A stretch of DNA of 64,000 nt from the NCBI GenBank assembly GCA_031275085.1, contig JAISPG010000073.1, positions 62,001-126,000 of the forward strand. Reading direction: 5' to 3'. The DNA is from Bacteroidales bacterium. GTDB taxonomy: Bacteria; Bacteroidota; Bacteroidia; Bacteroidales; ML635J-15. Each line of letters starts with the position of its first letter. The first letter of the stretch is position 1. Positions 7,329 to 44,604 of this stretch are shown piece by piece. Below the pieces are notes generated by a model. It saw only the letters and a list, made by a program, of their open reading frames with translations, was not told the DNA's origin and did not search any database. Made by a program: the position numbers and the translations under genes.

Positions 7329-7358
7329 TTGTATCTTCTAAGAAATATTTTATATTTG
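7329..7358 (+). promoter_or_regulatory. Bacteroidota-type promoter of the dsr-like operon
   Basis: TTG at 7329-7331, a 19-bp spacer, and TATATTTG at 7351-7358. This fits the Bacteroidota consensus (TTTG at -33, TAnnTTTG at -7) with the preferred spacing. The predicted start site is about 5-8 bases further, giving a leader of roughly 20-25 nt before the ATG at 7388. Confidence 0.7.
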
Positions 7359-7387
7359 CATTCGTTTTTGTATATGATTTTATATTT

Positions 7388-7630
7388 ATGGCTAATCCGA
7401 AAAAATGTCCTAACTCAGGTAATTGCATTATATTAGGCAATAATAATTTAGCAGGAGATATGGATATGAAAGAATTTTATATCAATCAATATTGTGATAA
7501 TGATACATTAAACGGATTTATTCAATGTAAAAGGTTCAATACAAAAAATGAGCTGGGGTTTTGTCCCGATTTCGTTTTACCGGATTCAGGTATGACTATA
7601 GATGAAATAATAAGTAAATTAGAAGAATAA
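7388..7630 (+). CDS. Small cysteine-rich protein heading the dsrC-dsrMK-like operon
   Basis: An 80-residue soluble protein with five cysteines: Cys7, Cys13, Cys36, Cys47 and Cys59. The first pair lies in KCPNSGNC, the third in INQYC, the fourth in IQCKRF and the last in GFCPDF. No signal peptide is present, so it is predicted to be cytoplasmic. The cysteine spacing suggests metal or iron-sulfur binding. It loosely recalls a short Cys-containing module (M-x-E-x-Y-x-x-x-YC...CxRY) that I remember from some anaerobes, but the family is not certain. It is 8 bp from dsrC and directly behind a strong promoter, so it is very probably co-expressed with the DsrC/MK proteins and may be an electron carrier or partner. 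Confidence 0.8.
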   Translation: MANPKKCPNSGNCIILGNNNLAGDMDMKEFYINQYCDNDTLNGFIQCKRFNTKNELGFCPDFVLPDSGMTIDEIISKLEE

Positions 7631-7638
7631 CTATAATT

Positions 7639-7932
7639 ATGGCAGAATTAAAATTTGACGGAGACGGTTTTTTAATTAATCCCGAAATATGGGATAATGA
7701 AGTTGCAGAACAGATTGCAAATGAAGATGGTATTGCAATGACAGATCAACATTGGTCTATCGTAAAAGTAATACGTAACAATTACGAAGAAAAAGGGAAT
7801 GCTCCGATGATACGTACAATCTGTAAAGAAACAGGACTTAAGTTAAAAGATATTTATGAATTATTTCCTTTAGGTCCTGCACGTGGTGCTTGTAGAGTTG
7901 CCGGCTTACCTAAACCTGACGGTTGCGTATAA
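7639..7932 (+). CDS. dsrC: DsrC family sulfur-carrier protein (two-cysteine form)
   Basis: A 97-residue protein with the full DsrC/TusE pattern: DGDGFLINPEIWDNEVAEQIA at the N-terminus, the helical central part with TDQHWSIVKVIRNNY, and the mobile C-terminal arm GPARGACRVAGLPKPDGCV. Both arm cysteines are present: the penultimate Cys96 (CysA) and Cys85 (CysB) eleven positions before it. This two-cysteine arm separates true DsrC from TusE, which keeps only the penultimate one. In sulfur metabolism DsrC carries sulfur as a trisulfide or cycles between dithiol and disulfide, and the membrane DsrMK complex acts on it. It lies 8 bp after the Cys-rich gene and 10 bp before the dsrM-like gene. No dsrAB is present in the window, so its sulfur donor is unknown. 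Confidence 0.95.
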   Translation: MAELKFDGDGFLINPEIWDNEVAEQIANEDGIAMTDQHWSIVKVIRNNYEEKGNAPMIRTICKETGLKLKDIYELFPLGPARGACRVAGLPKPDGCV

Positions 7933-7942
7933 AAATATAAAT

Positions 7943-8575
7943 ATGTATTGGTTCCAATATCTAAGTCTGGGGTGCTTATCTATTTGTATTTTAACACTCT
8001 TATGGCATTTTTTCCGTTTGATAAAATTAGGAAAACCTAAAGACCTTTCTGAAAAAAGTGGAAATATCCCAAAAGCTGAAATGTATTCATATACAATAGC
8101 TATGATGCCGACAAACAAAGAAACGGCATATTTACATATTCCTACTTTTACATTAGGTATGCTCTTCCATATAGGCACATTTGCCGGATTTATCCTTTTT
8201 GTTACATGGTTTTTTGTAAATCCTGAACAGTTTCCATATTGGCTGACAATATGTTCATCAATAATTTTAGCTATTGGTGCAGTATCCGGGATTTCTTTAT
8301 TTGTAAAAAGAATCCTTTTCAAAAAAATGAGAGAATTATCAAACCCTGATGATTTTTTATCTAATATTTTTACAACTTTATTTCAAGTAGCTACTTTGGC
8401 ATACTTAATGCTGGGATATGATTTTGCCATTCCGTATTATATAATAACTTCCATGTTGCTATTATATTTGCCGGTTGGAAAATTAAGGCATGTTGTATAT
8501 TTTTTCGCAGCACGTTACCATTTAGGTTTTTTTTATGGCTGGAGAAATTCATGGCCACCGCAAAAAACAAGTTAA
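7943..8575 (+). CDS. DsrM-like membrane cytochrome b subunit (NarI-like)
   Basis: A 210-residue membrane protein with about five hydrophobic segments (near residues 5-27, 70-92, 100-120, 143-160 and 163-180). Histidines at 22, 65, 76, 183 and 193 sit in or next to helices, as expected for b-heme ligation. The Leu-rich start, the loop TAYLHIPTF and the end LRHVVYFFAARYHLGFFYGWR fit the DsrM/NarI-type quinol-interacting family. I chose ATG 7943, which follows the dsrC stop by 10 bp; an upstream in-frame start at 7883 lies inside dsrC and is unlikely. Immediately followed (3 bp) by a dsrK-like gene. It probably exchanges electrons with menaquinone. Confidence 0.85.
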   Translation: MYWFQYLSLGCLSICILTLLWHFFRLIKLGKPKDLSEKSGNIPKAEMYSYTIAMMPTNKETAYLHIPTFTLGMLFHIGTFAGFILFVTWFFVNPEQFPYWLTICSSIILAIGAVSGISLFVKRILFKKMRELSNPDDFLSNIFTTLFQVATLAYLMLGYDFAIPYYIITSMLLLYLPVGKLRHVVYFFAARYHLGFFYGWRNSWPPQKTS

Positions 8576-8578
8576 ACT

Positions 8579-9868
8579 ATGGAAAAATTAACCAAACAAC
8601 AAATAGATAATGCAATAAGGCTGCTAAAAATGCCACCCGACAGTAAACTTGTGACTCATCTTAATGCATGTGTCCATTGTGGTTTATGCGGAGAAAGTTG
8701 TATGTATTACAAAACTATGGGAGATAACAGATTCTTACCTGCAAGAAAGGTAGAACTGGTGGCATCTCTATACAGAAAATATTGTACTCTTACAGGTAAA
8801 ATAGTGCCATCCCTGGTAAATGCCCGTGAACTTGATGAAAAAATGGCCGAAGAAATGGTTGATATGCTTTTCGGAGCATGCACTATGTGTGGTCGTTGCG
8901 TAAAACATTGTTCTATTGGTGTTGATATTTCCTATATCGTTCATGTTGGAAGGCGAATGCTGGCTGCTATGAATCTGGTTCCGGAAACACTTCAGGCTAC
9001 TGTAAACGCAGCGCTTGAAACAGGAAATAATATGGCAATCCCTACTGAAGATTTTGTTGATACTATAGAATGGATGGAAGAAGAGCTTATAGAAGAATAT
9101 GGGGAAGATGCCAGAATTCCATTAAATGAAACCGATAAAAAAGTTTTTTATACACTTAATCCAAGAGAACCAAAGTTTTTTCCGTTATCAATATCAGCTA
9201 TGGCAAAAATATTTTTTGCTGCAAAAGAAAGCTGGAGTATATCAACAAACATGTATGATGTAACTAATTATGGGATTTTTAACGGAAATAATTCTCAGGC
9301 GGCACAAATAGCCAAACGATTACACGACGAAGTACTAAGTAAAAAAAGTAAAGTCCTTGTTCTGGGAGAATGCGGCCACGGCACACGTGCTAACCGCTGG
9401 GAAGCTCCGAATTATTTGCAACAACCATATAATTTTGAGGTAACTACAGTTGTCGAACTTATAAATGACTATATTAGAAGCGGCAGAATCAAATTAGATA
9501 AATCATTGAACGACGAACTGGTAACAATACATGACCCTTGTAATTTAGTTCGTAATGGCGGACTATTATCTGAAATCCGTTTTACTGTAAAAAATTCTGT
9601 AAGTAATTTTATAGAAATGAATCCATACGGGCTTGATAACTTTTGTTGCGGCGGCGGCGGCGGACAGTTAGCTATGAGCGAATACAACGAACGCAGGATT
9701 AAAATAGGAGAGATTAAAGCAGAACAAATCAGGGCAACAGGAGCAAAAATAGTTGCAACTCCCTGCCATAATTGTGTCGATCAGTTAGCTCAACTAAATC
9801 ATACTTATAAACTCGGTGTTAAGATAAAAACTCTGGCAGAAATAGTAGCTGATGCTATTGTGTTATAA
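8579..9868 (+). CDS. DsrK-like iron-sulfur protein (HdrD family, CCG domain)
   Basis: A 429-residue cytoplasmic protein. Two ferredoxin-type [4Fe-4S] motifs are visible: Cys31/34/37/41 and Cys101/104/107/111. The C-terminal half holds one cysteine-rich CCG region: Cys265 (GECGHGTR), Cys321 (HDPCN), Cys356-Cys357 in CCGGGGG, and Cys396/Cys399 (TPCHNC). This is the architecture of DsrK and of heterodisulfide reductase HdrD, where the CCG region binds the special cluster that reduces or oxidises a disulfide. Together with the DsrM-like protein it should form a two-subunit membrane complex, with DsrC as the natural disulfide partner. DsrJ, DsrO and DsrP, found in many sulfate reducers, are missing. 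Related HmcF/TmcB-type proteins remain an alternative label. Confidence 0.9.
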   Translation: MEKLTKQQIDNAIRLLKMPPDSKLVTHLNACVHCGLCGESCMYYKTMGDNRFLPARKVELVASLYRKYCTLTGKIVPSLVNARELDEKMAEEMVDMLFGACTMCGRCVKHCSIGVDISYIVHVGRRMLAAMNLVPETLQATVNAALETGNNMAIPTEDFVDTIEWMEEELIEEYGEDARIPLNETDKKVFYTLNPREPKFFPLSISAMAKIFFAAKESWSISTNMYDVTNYGIFNGNNSQAAQIAKRLHDEVLSKKSKVLVLGECGHGTRANRWEAPNYLQQPYNFEVTTVVELINDYIRSGRIKLDKSLNDELVTIHDPCNLVRNGGLLSEIRFTVKNSVSNFIEMNPYGLDNFCCGGGGGQLAMSEYNERRIKIGEIKAEQIRATGAKIVATPCHNCVDQLAQLNHTYKLGVKIKTLAEIVADAIVL

Positions 9869-12167: not shown

Positions 12168-13322
12168 ATGATATATTTAGACAATTCAGCAACCACATTT
12201 CCAAAACCGGATGCGGTTTATGATTTTATGACGAATTTCTATCGTAAACATGGTGTAAATCCCGGACGTTCCGGATTTGACGCTGCAATCGAAACAGAAG
12301 AAGTTATTTTCAATACACGTAAATTATTAACAGACTTATTTAATGGCGGTGGAGATCCGAATCGTTTGACATTCAGCCATAATGCTACCGATTCATTAAA
12401 TCTTATATTACAAGGATTATCGGAAAAAGGAGATCATGTTGTAACTACGATGCTGGAACATAATTCTGTTTTACGTCCCTTATATTGTATGCAACAACAA
12501 GGAATTATAGATGTAACATATGTTCCTTTCGACAATGCAGGTTATGTTGATCCTGACGATATAAAAAAAGCAATACGTCCGAATACTAAATTTGTTGTGT
12601 GTACTCATAGTTCAAATGTTATCGGAACTATTCAACCACTCAGCGAGATCGGAAAAATATGTAAGGGGGCTGGAGTCATTTTTGTTGTTGACGGCAGCCA
12701 GGGAGCAGGTGCTGTGAATGTCGACATGGTTGCTTCAAATATTGATGTTTATATATTTACCGGACATAAATGTTTAATGGGACCAACCGGGATAGGAGGG
12801 TCTTATGTTCGTGAAGGTATTAATATAAGACATACCAGATATGGTGGAACAGGAGTGAGGTCTGCATATCCGGCACATCTCGACGAATATCCTTATCGCC
12901 TTGAAACAGGAACTTTGAATTTATTGGGTATTGCAGGATTAAATGCAGGTGTTAAATGGATTACAGAAAAAGGTATTGAAAATTTACATAAACAAGAATT
13001 AATCCTTTGGGACAAACTTCGTTTAGCATTGCAAAATATTGAAGGAATTACAACCTATTGTGCAGTTGATGCCAATAACCAGAATCCCGTATTGAGTTTT
13101 AATATAAAAGGTTTTGAGGCAGGCGATGTTGGCATGATGCTTGATGTTGATTATGATATTGCCTGTCGTACAGGACTACAGTGTGCTCCTAAAGTTCATG
13201 AAAAAATTGGAACTATTGATATGCACGGTACTGTTCGTTTAAGTTTAGGACCTTTTAGTACCGAATCAGATGTCAATGCTGCAATTGAAGCAGTTAAAGA
13301 AATTTCTGCGATTAAAAATTAA
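12168..13322 (+). CDS. Cysteine desulfurase family protein (class V aminotransferase, EF2568-type)
   Basis: A 384-residue PLP enzyme. The start is taken as ATG 12168 (MIYLDNSATTFPKP); an upstream TTG would add 16 residues not seen in the family. Features: HNATDSLN (residues 71-78), LEHNS with His98, Asp175 in VVDGSQGAG, PLP lysine Lys201 in TGHKCLMGPTG, and the C-terminal RTGLQCAPKVH with candidate active-site Cys339. This is the pattern of the EF2568/TIGR01977 subfamily rather than IscS/SufS. Such enzymes are thought to remove sulfur or selenium from cysteine derivatives; the exact substrate is not known. It is about 2.3 kb downstream of the dsrC operon on the same strand but separated by a gene and a terminator, so linkage in function is only a suggestion. 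Confidence 0.85.
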   Translation: MIYLDNSATTFPKPDAVYDFMTNFYRKHGVNPGRSGFDAAIETEEVIFNTRKLLTDLFNGGGDPNRLTFSHNATDSLNLILQGLSEKGDHVVTTMLEHNSVLRPLYCMQQQGIIDVTYVPFDNAGYVDPDDIKKAIRPNTKFVVCTHSSNVIGTIQPLSEIGKICKGAGVIFVVDGSQGAGAVNVDMVASNIDVYIFTGHKCLMGPTGIGGSYVREGINIRHTRYGGTGVRSAYPAHLDEYPYRLETGTLNLLGIAGLNAGVKWITEKGIENLHKQELILWDKLRLALQNIEGITTYCAVDANNQNPVLSFNIKGFEAGDVGMMLDVDYDIACRTGLQCAPKVHEKIGTIDMHGTVRLSLGPFSTESDVNAAIEAVKEISAIKN

Positions 13323-43707: not shown

Positions 43708-44604
43708 ATGAAACACTCAGTAAAAGAATGGTTTTTGGCAACTCGTCCCTGGTCTCTTACAGCATCAAGCATGCCGGCATTAGTAGCTATTTCATATATT
43801 TTCTATATAGATGATAAATTTATCAATATAAACTGGATATACGGACTATTAGGTCTTTTGGGCGCTATTATATTTCAGATCGGAGGTAATTTATTAAATG
43901 ATTATTTTGATTTTAAATATAATGTCGACCGTAAGGATACATATTCAAGCAGAACCTTAGTTGACAATATATTTACATCCAAATCTATTTTTAATTTTGG
44001 ACTGATTTCACTTATTGCCGGAAGCATTATTGGAATTTATTTAATGTTAAATACCGGATGGCATTTATTATGGATAGGAATTCTTGGCTTTCTCGGATCT
44101 TACTTTTATTACAAACTAAAATACATCGCTCTTGGGGATTTGAATATTTTTATTATTTACGGATTATTGATAAGTCTGGGAATTGGATATGTTATGACTG
44201 GTGAATTAATTTGGAATATTTTACTTGTATCTTCACCTGTAGGATTTTTAATTGTTGGTATATTACATGCAAATAATACACGGGATATTTTAAACGATCA
44301 AAAAGCCGGAATAAAAACTCCTGCAATGAAACTAGGGTTAAAAGCGTCAAAACTTTATTTTCTGCTGTTAAATTTTGGAGCATATATAATGATTTTATTA
44401 TTATTATTTTTTAAAATATTACCTCCACTTTGCATATCAATCTTTTTCATATTGCCAATATCTATAAGGAATATACGACAAATGAATGAAGCCGGCATAG
44501 AAAATCTTGAAAAAATAAAATATTTAGCTGAATCAATGGCAAAACTGGTAATGTTATTTAGTTTGATGTATGCAATTTCAAATTTTATTGCAGGATTAGT
44601 GTGA
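43708..44604 (+). CDS. menA: 1,4-dihydroxy-2-naphthoate polyprenyltransferase
   Basis: A 298-residue UbiA-family membrane enzyme with about eight membrane helices. It attaches the polyprenyl chain to dihydroxynaphthoate in menaquinone synthesis. The prenyl-diphosphate/Mg2+ motif is GNLLNDYFDFKYNVD (Asn64, Asp65, Asp68, with Asp74) and the second aspartate motif is NNTRDILNDQKAG. The presence of menaquinone fits the quinone-linked DsrM-like and NDH-2 proteins of this window. It ends 6 bp from the convergent tcdA. Confidence 0.93.
   Translation: MKHSVKEWFLATRPWSLTASSMPALVAISYIFYIDDKFININWIYGLLGLLGAIIFQIGGNLLNDYFDFKYNVDRKDTYSSRTLVDNIFTSKSIFNFGLISLIAGSIIGIYLMLNTGWHLLWIGILGFLGSYFYYKLKYIALGDLNIFIIYGLLISLGIGYVMTGELIWNILLVSSPVGFLIVGILHANNTRDILNDQKAGIKTPAMKLGLKASKLYFLLLNFGAYIMILLLLFFKILPPLCISIFFILPISIRNIRQMNEAGIENLEKIKYLAESMAKLVMLFSLMYAISNFIAGLV

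What the first reader, a model, noticed from the sequence alone, without database searches (positions are those of the whole stretch)
7329..9868. Compact DsrC-DsrMK-like operon in a Bacteroidota genome, without dsrAB or DsrJOP nearby
Seen directly: a two-cysteine DsrC (Cys85, Cys96), a DsrM-like cytochrome b and a DsrK-like protein with two ferredoxin motifs plus a CCG cluster, in order with 3-10 bp spacing behind a consensus promoter. Known: DsrC and DsrMK act with sulfite reductase in sulfur metabolism. Inference: here the DsrC/DsrMK redox pair may serve another task, such as thiol-disulfide electron transfer with menaquinone, assimilatory sulfur relay or sulfur compound detoxification.
Basis: partly seen in the sequence, partly recalled or inferred. 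Interest (0 to 1): 0.85.

Follow-up and report, generated by a model that had tools for sequence, protein, structure and literature searches.

The report
Cysteine-fed DsrC membrane relay without sulfite reductase
Some Bacteroidota, many of them from gut or rumen samples, carry a sulfur-carrier protein and a membrane redox complex resembling those of sulfate reducers, but with no sulfite reductase found and paired instead with an enzyme that pulls sulfur off cysteine, which points to an unrecognised way of turning cysteine sulfur into sulfide at the membrane.

Summary
The window has DsrC (7639-7932, Cys85 and Cys96), a cytochrome-b-like protein M (7943-8575) and a CCG/ferredoxin protein K (8579-9868), 10 and 3 bp apart.

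This is a conserved module of Bacteroidota and Ignavibacteriota. DsrC-M-K is contiguous in 50 of 80 loci; the desulfurase is the next gene in 42 of 47 of those with room. Over its cut-off it occurs in 32 of 33 K-bearing genomes tested, but in 2 of 149 sampled class genomes, the same 2 that have K. PF01077 (siroheme sulfite/nitrite reductases) was found in 0 of those 33 genomes, the window's included.

K scores closer to TmcB/HmcF than to DsrK, so "DsrMK" is a loose name. Published text says the second DsrC cysteine occurs only with DsrAB, with few exceptions (PMC3397948); 31 of 31 DsrCs of the tested genomes break this.

Best reading: desulfurase loads DsrC with cysteine sulfur; the membrane complex reduces it, releasing sulfide. 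Direction and electron donor are unproven.

The parts
7329..7358 (+). Bacteroidota-type promoter-like motif TTG-N19-TATATTTG, 29 bp before the first ORF
   Evidence: 4 in window, 2.5 expected by chance; consensus recalled; position only, no function shown
7388..7630 (+). orfA, 80 aa, five invariant Cys (C7, C13, C36, C47, C59), unknown family, optional part of the module
   Evidence: no Pfam/NCBIfam hit; 11-sequence alignment; 8 of 46 loci
7639..7932 (+). DsrC, 97 aa, both tail cysteines (Cys85 codon 7891-7893, Cys96 codon 7924-7926) and Cys62
7943..8575 (+). M, 210 aa membrane protein, invariant His65, His76, His183; five hydrophobic stretches; weak HmcE/TmcC relative
8579..9868 (+). K, 429 aa, two [4Fe-4S] ferredoxin motifs plus one CCG domain; TmcB/HmcF/DsrK superfamily, nearest to TmcB/HmcF by HMM score
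10149..11975 (+). 608 aa ORF with a T9SS sorting tail, lies between K and the desulfurase in this genome; probably not part of the module
   Evidence: in L072, the relative with the highest K identity (85%), the desulfurase starts 34 bp after K
12168..13322 (+). cysteine desulfurase of the TIGR01977 type (ATG at 12168; the ORF list starts at TTG 12120)
   Evidence: 426 bits, cut-off 377; Lys217 and Cys355, ORF numbering, in 45 of 45 sequences with a letter there; their catalytic role is recalled
43708..44604 (+). MenA-like prenyltransferase (below NCBIfam cut-offs), possible quinone salvage; not part of the operon

Best explanation
A sulfite-reductase-independent DsrC reduction module fed by cysteine. 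Step 1 (inferred): the TIGR01977 desulfurase removes sulfur from cysteine and loads it as a persulfide on DsrC Cys96, directly or through TusA/DsrE2 where these exist. Step 2 (inferred from DsrC chemistry): Cys85 attacks the persulfide, giving an intramolecular disulfide and free sulfide, or a trisulfide-type species. Step 3 (inferred from anatomy): the CCG cluster of K reduces oxidised DsrC; electrons reach K from the membrane through b-type haem in M, most likely from menaquinol where the cell has it. Net: cysteine + 2 electrons -> alanine + H2S, a reductive sink for membrane electrons or a controlled sulfide source. Shown here: the gene set, its conservation, the co-occurrence, the absence of PF01077 in the genomes tested, the conserved cysteines and histidines. 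Not shown: any activity, direction, haem, or electron donor.
For: Desulfurase next to K in 42 of 47 contiguous loci. Over-cut-off desulfurase in 32 of 33 K-bearing genomes against 2 of 149 class genomes, the same two that hold K (Fisher p 9e-5, not corrected for kinship). Co-occurrence survives loss of linkage: in G621, G622 and G626, DsrC-M, K and the desulfurase are all present but not adjacent. PF01077 in 0 of 33. Both tail cysteines in 57 of 57 module DsrCs collected and in 0 of 20 other Bacteroidia DsrCs. All ferredoxin and CCG cysteines of K invariant in 83. PMC3397948 (passages; section 7 whole): A. vinosum DsrC was incubated with the cysteine desulfurase IscS plus cysteine, or with sulfide, and persulfuration on the penultimate cysteine is reported; the text does not separate the two donors for DsrC. 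DsrE2 and TusA genes follow the desulfurase in 4 of 80 loci and a SufS-like protein precedes DsrC in 6 of 80.
Against: No experiment. The in vitro precedent is not clean: the discussion of PMC3397948 credits DsrC loading to sulfide or persulfidic DsrEFH. Three K-bearing genomes with neither MenD nor MqnA/D also lack any MenA match (G607, G608, G623), so a quinol donor is doubtful there. One K-bearing genome (G611) lacks the desulfurase and two (G400, whose locus is at a contig end, and G623) lack a detected DsrC. The desulfurase is not adjacent in 5 of 47 contiguous loci, nor in any of 26 detached-K loci with room. One hen-caecum study found Butyricimonas abundance negatively correlated with H2S (PMC6813079, passages), which its authors connect with competition with sulfate reducers. 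L239, near one module copy, has a weak sulfide:quinone reductase-like gene and cytochrome bd, compatible with the oxidative direction.
Confidence: 0.5

Rival explanations
1. Oxidative direction: DsrC carries sulfide- or desulfurase-derived sulfane sulfur and M-K oxidises DsrC thiols/persulfide, passing electrons to quinone; the sulfane sulfur goes to other acceptors (biosynthesis, storage, export).
For: In a few loci the cluster continues into DsrE2 and TusA (4 loci) and FlpD, HdrA-like and QmoC-like genes (3 loci), which recall sulfur-oxidiser modules (from memory); one genome has a weak SQR-like gene plus cytochrome bd genes near a module copy.
Against: No PF01077 protein such as DsrAB to oxidise the sulfur further; the extension was seen in only 3-4 of 80 loci; many records come from rumen or faeces by title; cysteine desulfurases run from cysteine to alanine (recalled).
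Confidence: 0.16
2. General thiol-disulfide hub: DsrC is a protein redox carrier linking cytoplasmic donors to the membrane, as postulated for FlxABCD-HdrABC, Tmc and Hmc with DsrC in Desulfovibrio; the desulfurase mends or modifies and is not the substrate supplier.
For: TmcABCD, HmcABCDEF and FlxABCD-HdrABC are postulated DsrC partners (PMC6470260, passages); K is nearest to TmcB/HmcF; HdrA/FlpD/QmoC genes follow in 3 loci.
Against: Those Hdr genes were found near the module in only 3 of 80 loci, whereas the desulfurase is in 32 of 33 genomes.
Confidence: 0.15
3. Biosynthetic sulfur relay (TusE-like, tRNA thiolation or Fe-S/cofactor assembly) with K and M keeping DsrC reduced.
For: Desulfurase-to-DsrC-family relays exist (E. 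coli IscS-TusA-TusBCD-TusE-MnmA; PMC3397948 passages).
Against: TusE equivalog model not met (67 against 191 bits); in organisms without DsrAB the second cysteine is almost always replaced (PMC3397948), but it is kept in 57 of 57 here; a second DsrC-family gene coexists in 5 of 33 genomes (G172, G620, G624, G629, G634), shown to be of the single-Cys kind only for G172; a biosynthetic relay does not explain an Fe-S membrane complex.
Confidence: 0.12
4. Ordinary dsr operon remnant, acquired as a fragment and decaying.
For: DsrC itself falls on the side of the two-cysteine dsr DsrCs against the single-Cys ones (100/100, midpoint root). DsrK-clade proteins without an identified DsrAB are on record (7 assemblies; PMC10504309 passages).
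Against: Conserved in Bacteroidota and Ignavibacteriota with invariant cysteines; own DsrC clade (100/99); K scores less for DsrK than for TmcB/HmcF; parts kept although unlinked.
Confidence: 0.03

Closest known systems
DsrC-DsrMK(JOP) of dissimilatory sulfur metabolism
   Same: Two-cysteine DsrC; membrane protein plus CCG Fe-S protein in one operon
   Different: No PF01077 protein in 33 of 33 genomes tested; K fails the DsrK cut-off (226 of 400 bits; a control from family f75 scores 669); M has no Pfam hit; coupled to a cysteine desulfurase. DsrK-clade proteins without identified DsrAB have been noted before (7 assemblies, and basal Chloroflexi DsrM; PMC10504309 passages)
TmcABCD / HmcABCDEF of Desulfovibrio (TmcB/HmcF and TmcC/HmcE subunits)
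   Same: K and M are nearest to these by HMM (278/270 bits; weak for M); both postulated DsrC partners (PMC6470260 passages)
   Different: Far below equivalog cut-offs (735, 750; 240, 275); no neighbouring multihaem cytochrome c noticed (not searched genome-wide); hosts without PF01077
IscS-TusA-TusBCD-TusE sulfur relay
   Same: Cysteine desulfurase together with a DsrC-family protein
   Different: TusE has one tail cysteine and no membrane redox partner (recalled, and PMC3397948 passages); TusE equivalog model not met
FlxABCD-HdrABC with DsrC (D. vulgaris)
   Same: DsrC used outside sulfite reduction; HdrA/FlpD genes near the module in 3 of 80 loci
   Different: Soluble complex (PMC6470260); no such genes noticed near the window copy

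Membership tests
DsrC family (PF04358/TIGR03342) | HMM above curated cut-off | tested here: met
   120.7 of 24.9 bits; 104.3 of 53.5
DsrC family (PF04358/TIGR03342) | Two C-terminal redox cysteines (dsr type) rather than one (TusE type) | tested here: met
   57 of 57 module sequences collected
TusE (NF008562) | Equivalog cut-off | tested here: not met
   67.2 of 191 bits
DsrMK(JOP) / DsrK | NF045796 DsrK cut-off | tested here: not met
   226.3 of 400 bits; control L035 668.8; a second control, L028, also misses it at 280.6 but scores DsrK above TmcB
DsrMK(JOP) / DsrM | Recognisable DsrM/NarI-type domain by sequence | tested here: not met
   no Pfam hit at E 0.01; only weak HmcE/TmcC; fold not tested
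Dsr sulfite/sulfate reduction or reverse-Dsr | DsrAB (PF01077 proteins) in the genome | tested here: not met
   0 of 33 genomes; control rings in 11 of 14
Dsr sulfite/sulfate reduction or reverse-Dsr | DsrJOP, AprAB, Sat | not tested
Tmc / Hmc complex | TmcB or HmcF equivalog cut-off | tested here: not met
   278 of 735 and 270 of 750 bits
Tmc / Hmc complex | Multihaem cytochrome c partner (TmcA/HmcA) | not tested
   no genome-wide search; none noticed in the operon
HdrD/HdrB-type heterodisulfide reductases | CCG cysteine set for a non-cubane Fe-S cluster | tested here: met
   PF02754 41.8 of 20.6 bits, one stretch; cysteines invariant in 83; HdrD/HdrB have two such domains (recalled)
Cysteine desulfurase TIGR01977 | Curated cut-off and the Lys and Cys taken as catalytic (recalled) | tested here: met
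   426 of 377 bits; Lys217 and Cys355 in 45 of 45
Quinone-linked complex | Host makes or salvages menaquinone | tested here: inconclusive
   MenD over cut-off 4, MqnA/D 13, neither 16 of 33; of those 16, MenA over cut-off in 8, weak in 5, none in 3; the broad UbiA family in 31 of 33

The most novel reading that the evidence does not exclude
A new respiratory or electron-sink pathway: membrane electrons reduce sulfur taken from cysteine through a DsrC carrier and an HdrD-like membrane complex, releasing alanine and H2S (cysteine desulfuration respiration), in Bacteroidota and Ignavibacteriota that lack any siroheme sulfite reductase.
Probability: 0.3. Interest if true: 0.88.

Novelty: new variant of a known kind. 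Interest (0 to 1): 0.72.

Why it matters
Two-cysteine DsrC is read as a mark of DsrAB-based sulfur metabolism. Here is a conserved DsrC and membrane complex with no siroheme sulfite reductase found, tied to a cysteine desulfurase. If it reduces cysteine sulfur at the membrane, it adds an H2S-forming electron sink to gut and rumen bacteria, would explain some DsrC calls in metagenomes that are not sulfate reduction, and suggests that DsrC plus an HdrD-like complex is a module separable from sulfite reduction. A named isolate, Butyricimonas synergistica DSM 23225, has it (L143), which makes it testable.

Tried and rejected
Ordinary dsr fragment: rejected on K class, DsrC clade and invariance. 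Sulfite reduction, assimilatory or detoxifying: rejected for lack of PF01077 in 33 of 33 genomes tested. TusE role: equivalog not met. orfA: iterative search within the held loci found 8 members and the libraries no family; function not resolved. Promoter: E. coli-type scan at chance. I first thought Cys62 of DsrC was unique to the module, but it also occurs in the two f90 DsrCs, so I dropped it as a marker.

Limits of the samples. The one genome-contig scan kept the best 80 of 167 relatives; the other 87 were not seen, so presence in further phyla is open. In one search the copies L014 (stop inside) and L024 (partial) were left out of the single-Cys count. The 57 module DsrCs are those scoring at least 150 bits with my own profile. 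The DsrC tree used 23 of these 57, 105 columns, and 23 of 50 inner forks are open. No K tree with Tmc/Hmc references was built, since no named reference sequences were at hand. PMC6813079 was read (passages) for H2S and Butyricimonas and gave a negative correlation. On rechecking I lowered the best explanation from 0.52 to 0.50 and raised the oxidative rival from 0.15 to 0.16, because PMC3397948 does not separate IscS from sulfide as the donor to DsrC.
Full report
Observation. DsrC is above the Pfam and TIGR cut-offs. An 80-aa ORF with five conserved cysteines (7388-7630) precedes DsrC by 8 bp and is conserved in some relatives, so the operon probably begins there. A cysteine desulfurase family protein lies on the same strand at about 12168-13322, after one T9SS-tailed gene.

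What K and M are. K has ferredoxin and CCG cysteines, but its best NCBIfam models are TmcB (278 bits), HmcF (270) and DsrK (226), none over cut-off. K of Butyricimonas (297, 288, 231) and of L127 (292, 292, 239) behave the same way. As controls, a K from family f75 (unnamed; I take it for Chlorobi) scores 669 for DsrK and 173 for TmcB, and one from family f90 scores 281 and 177. M has no Pfam hit and weak HmcE/TmcC hits in the window, and in three of three relatives tested. In the M alignment His65 and His76 are kept in 60 of 60 and His183 in 61 of 61 sequences with a letter there; in 83 K sequences the ferredoxin and CCG cysteines are invariant. I therefore call the pair an HdrD-like membrane complex of the Tmc/Hmc/Dsr superfamily, not DsrMK.

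How widespread. Among 247 genomes of the class, 24 match PF04358, 23 over cut-off. Of the 25 loci fetched, only those of the window genome, G141 and G172 carry orfA, M and K beside DsrC (about 1.5 kb each side); 12 of the other loci were checked again with wider flanks and none had M or K. The other Bacteroidia DsrCs have one tail cysteine (20 of 20 readable). In 395 genomes of the phylum 63 match K at E 1e-30, but only G000 and G400 closely (67% identity for G400); the other 61 are at 28-32% identity, and the two of them tested score best as DsrK. A GTDB scan gave 167 relatives, 80 kept at 62-85% identity: 76 Bacteroidota and 4 Ignavibacteriota by record taxonomy, with titles that include rumen, horse faeces, groundwater, sediment and Lac Pavin sources, and Butyricimonas synergistica DSM 23225.

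Gene order. DsrC-M-K is contiguous in 50 of 80 loci; in 27 K lacks DsrC beside it although at least 1.2 kb upstream was held (two of these, L111 and L121, still have M); 3 were at contig ends. Of the 50, 47 had at least 700 b downstream and 42 of these have the desulfurase as next gene; 5 do not (L081-L085). Of 26 detached K loci with room, none has it adjacent. In the three detached genomes examined DsrC and M stay together. The distance from K to DsrC-M is about 7 kb in G626, about 29 kb in G622 (same contig by its length) and another contig in G621; the desulfurase is on a further contig in each.

Co-occurrence. In a draw of 149 class genomes, the desulfurase model TIGR01977 passes its cut-off in 2, G000 and G141, although 149 of 149 have weaker family hits; K occurs in the same 2. 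Fisher p is 9e-5, without correction for kinship. Among 33 K-bearing genomes the desulfurase passes in 32, the miss being G611, and DsrC is found in 31, the misses being G400, whose locus is at a contig end, and G623. Keeping the set while losing linkage argues for shared function rather than hitch-hiking.

No sulfite reductase. PF01077, which covers DsrA, DsrB, AsrC and assimilatory sulfite/nitrite reductases (coverage recalled), is absent from 33 of 33 K-bearing genomes tested, including Bacteroidales bacterium CF (record titled complete genome) and Butyricimonas synergistica DSM 23225; the control found it in 11 of 14 genomes. Most of the 33 are drafts, and the window genome is 89% complete. 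[quoted passage not shown] All 57 module DsrCs collected have it, and so do the 31 found in the tested genomes (29 of them among the 57; those of G621 and G622 read).

Phylogeny. In a tree of 55 DsrCs the 23 module sequences form one side of a branch with 100/99 support, apart from the f75, f90 and two solved dsr-type DsrCs; the single-Cys group is split off at 100/100. Resolution inside is poor (105 columns).

Mechanism. A. vinosum DsrC was treated with IscS plus cysteine, or with sulfide, and persulfuration of the penultimate cysteine is reported (PMC3397948, section 7); the text does not separate the donors for DsrC, and its discussion names sulfide and persulfidic DsrEFH. Direct desulfurase-to-DsrC transfer is thus plausible, not proven. 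With CysB present, persulfide can resolve to disulfide plus sulfide, and a CCG protein is the known kind of enzyme for reducing it (recalled; the trisulfide model is described in PMC10504309 and PMC6470260 passages). From recalled formation energies I estimate the cysteine/alanine+H2S couple near -0.1 V, close to menaquinone; this is not from a call. Direction and donor are inferred. The quinone question is open: MenD over cut-off in 4, MqnA/D in 13, neither in 16 of 33; of those 16, MenA is over cut-off in 8, weak in 5 including the window genome, and absent in 3. The broad UbiA family is in 31 of 33.

Extended clusters. In four loci (L100, L118, L119, L127; two from Lac Pavin records) DsrE2 and TusA follow the desulfurase, and in three of them FlpD, two HdrA-like proteins and a QmoC-like protein come next (the L119 stretch ends before that point); a SufS-like enzyme precedes DsrC in six loci. 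These link the module to sulfur transfer, and leave room for an oxidative or bidirectional use in that group.

Literature. Nine searches of the open library paired DsrC with Bacteroidetes, Bacteroidales, TmcB/TmcC, desulfurase, DsrE/TusA, Odoribacter/Butyricimonas, heterodisulfide reductase, trisulfide, or lack of DsrAB; three listings were cut (20 of 57, 20 of 62, 8 of 31). In the listings, and in the passages read of nine papers (one section whole), I saw no description of this module. PMC10504309 does note seven assemblies in a basal DsrK clade, and Chloroflexi DsrM, without an identified DsrAB, so a DsrK-type protein without DsrAB is not new in itself. Most subscription papers are not held, so prior description cannot be excluded.

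Verdict. A real, conserved system (desulfurase, DsrC, M, K, with optional orfA), a new variant of DsrC/HdrD-type redox modules, with a testable proposal that it reduces cysteine sulfur to sulfide at the membrane.

Noticed in passing
window 7388-7630: Small ORF with C-P-N-x4-C, C, C-K/R-R and F-C-P-D cysteines before DsrC; no known family; present only in some module loci.
   Followed up: partly
L004-L025, L058-L069: About 9% of the class genomes (22 of 247, two of the copies not readable) carry another DsrC-family gene; the 20 readable have a single tail cysteine, and no M/K within about 1.5 kb.
   Followed up: partly
L100, L118, L127: Module continues into DsrE2, TusA, FlpD, an HdrA fused to a GltD-like domain, a second HdrA and a QmoC-like protein.
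   Followed up: partly
L239 4469-8951: Weak type III sulfide:quinone reductase-like gene followed by cytochrome bd genes, near a module copy.
   Followed up: no
window genome and 15 other K-bearing genomes: Neither MenD over cut-off nor MqnA/D found, while 8 of the 16 have an over-cut-off MenA: possible dependence on outside quinone precursors.
   Followed up: partly
window 7639-7680: The DsrC of the window lacks about 7 N-terminal residues that those of G141 and G172 have.
   Followed up: no
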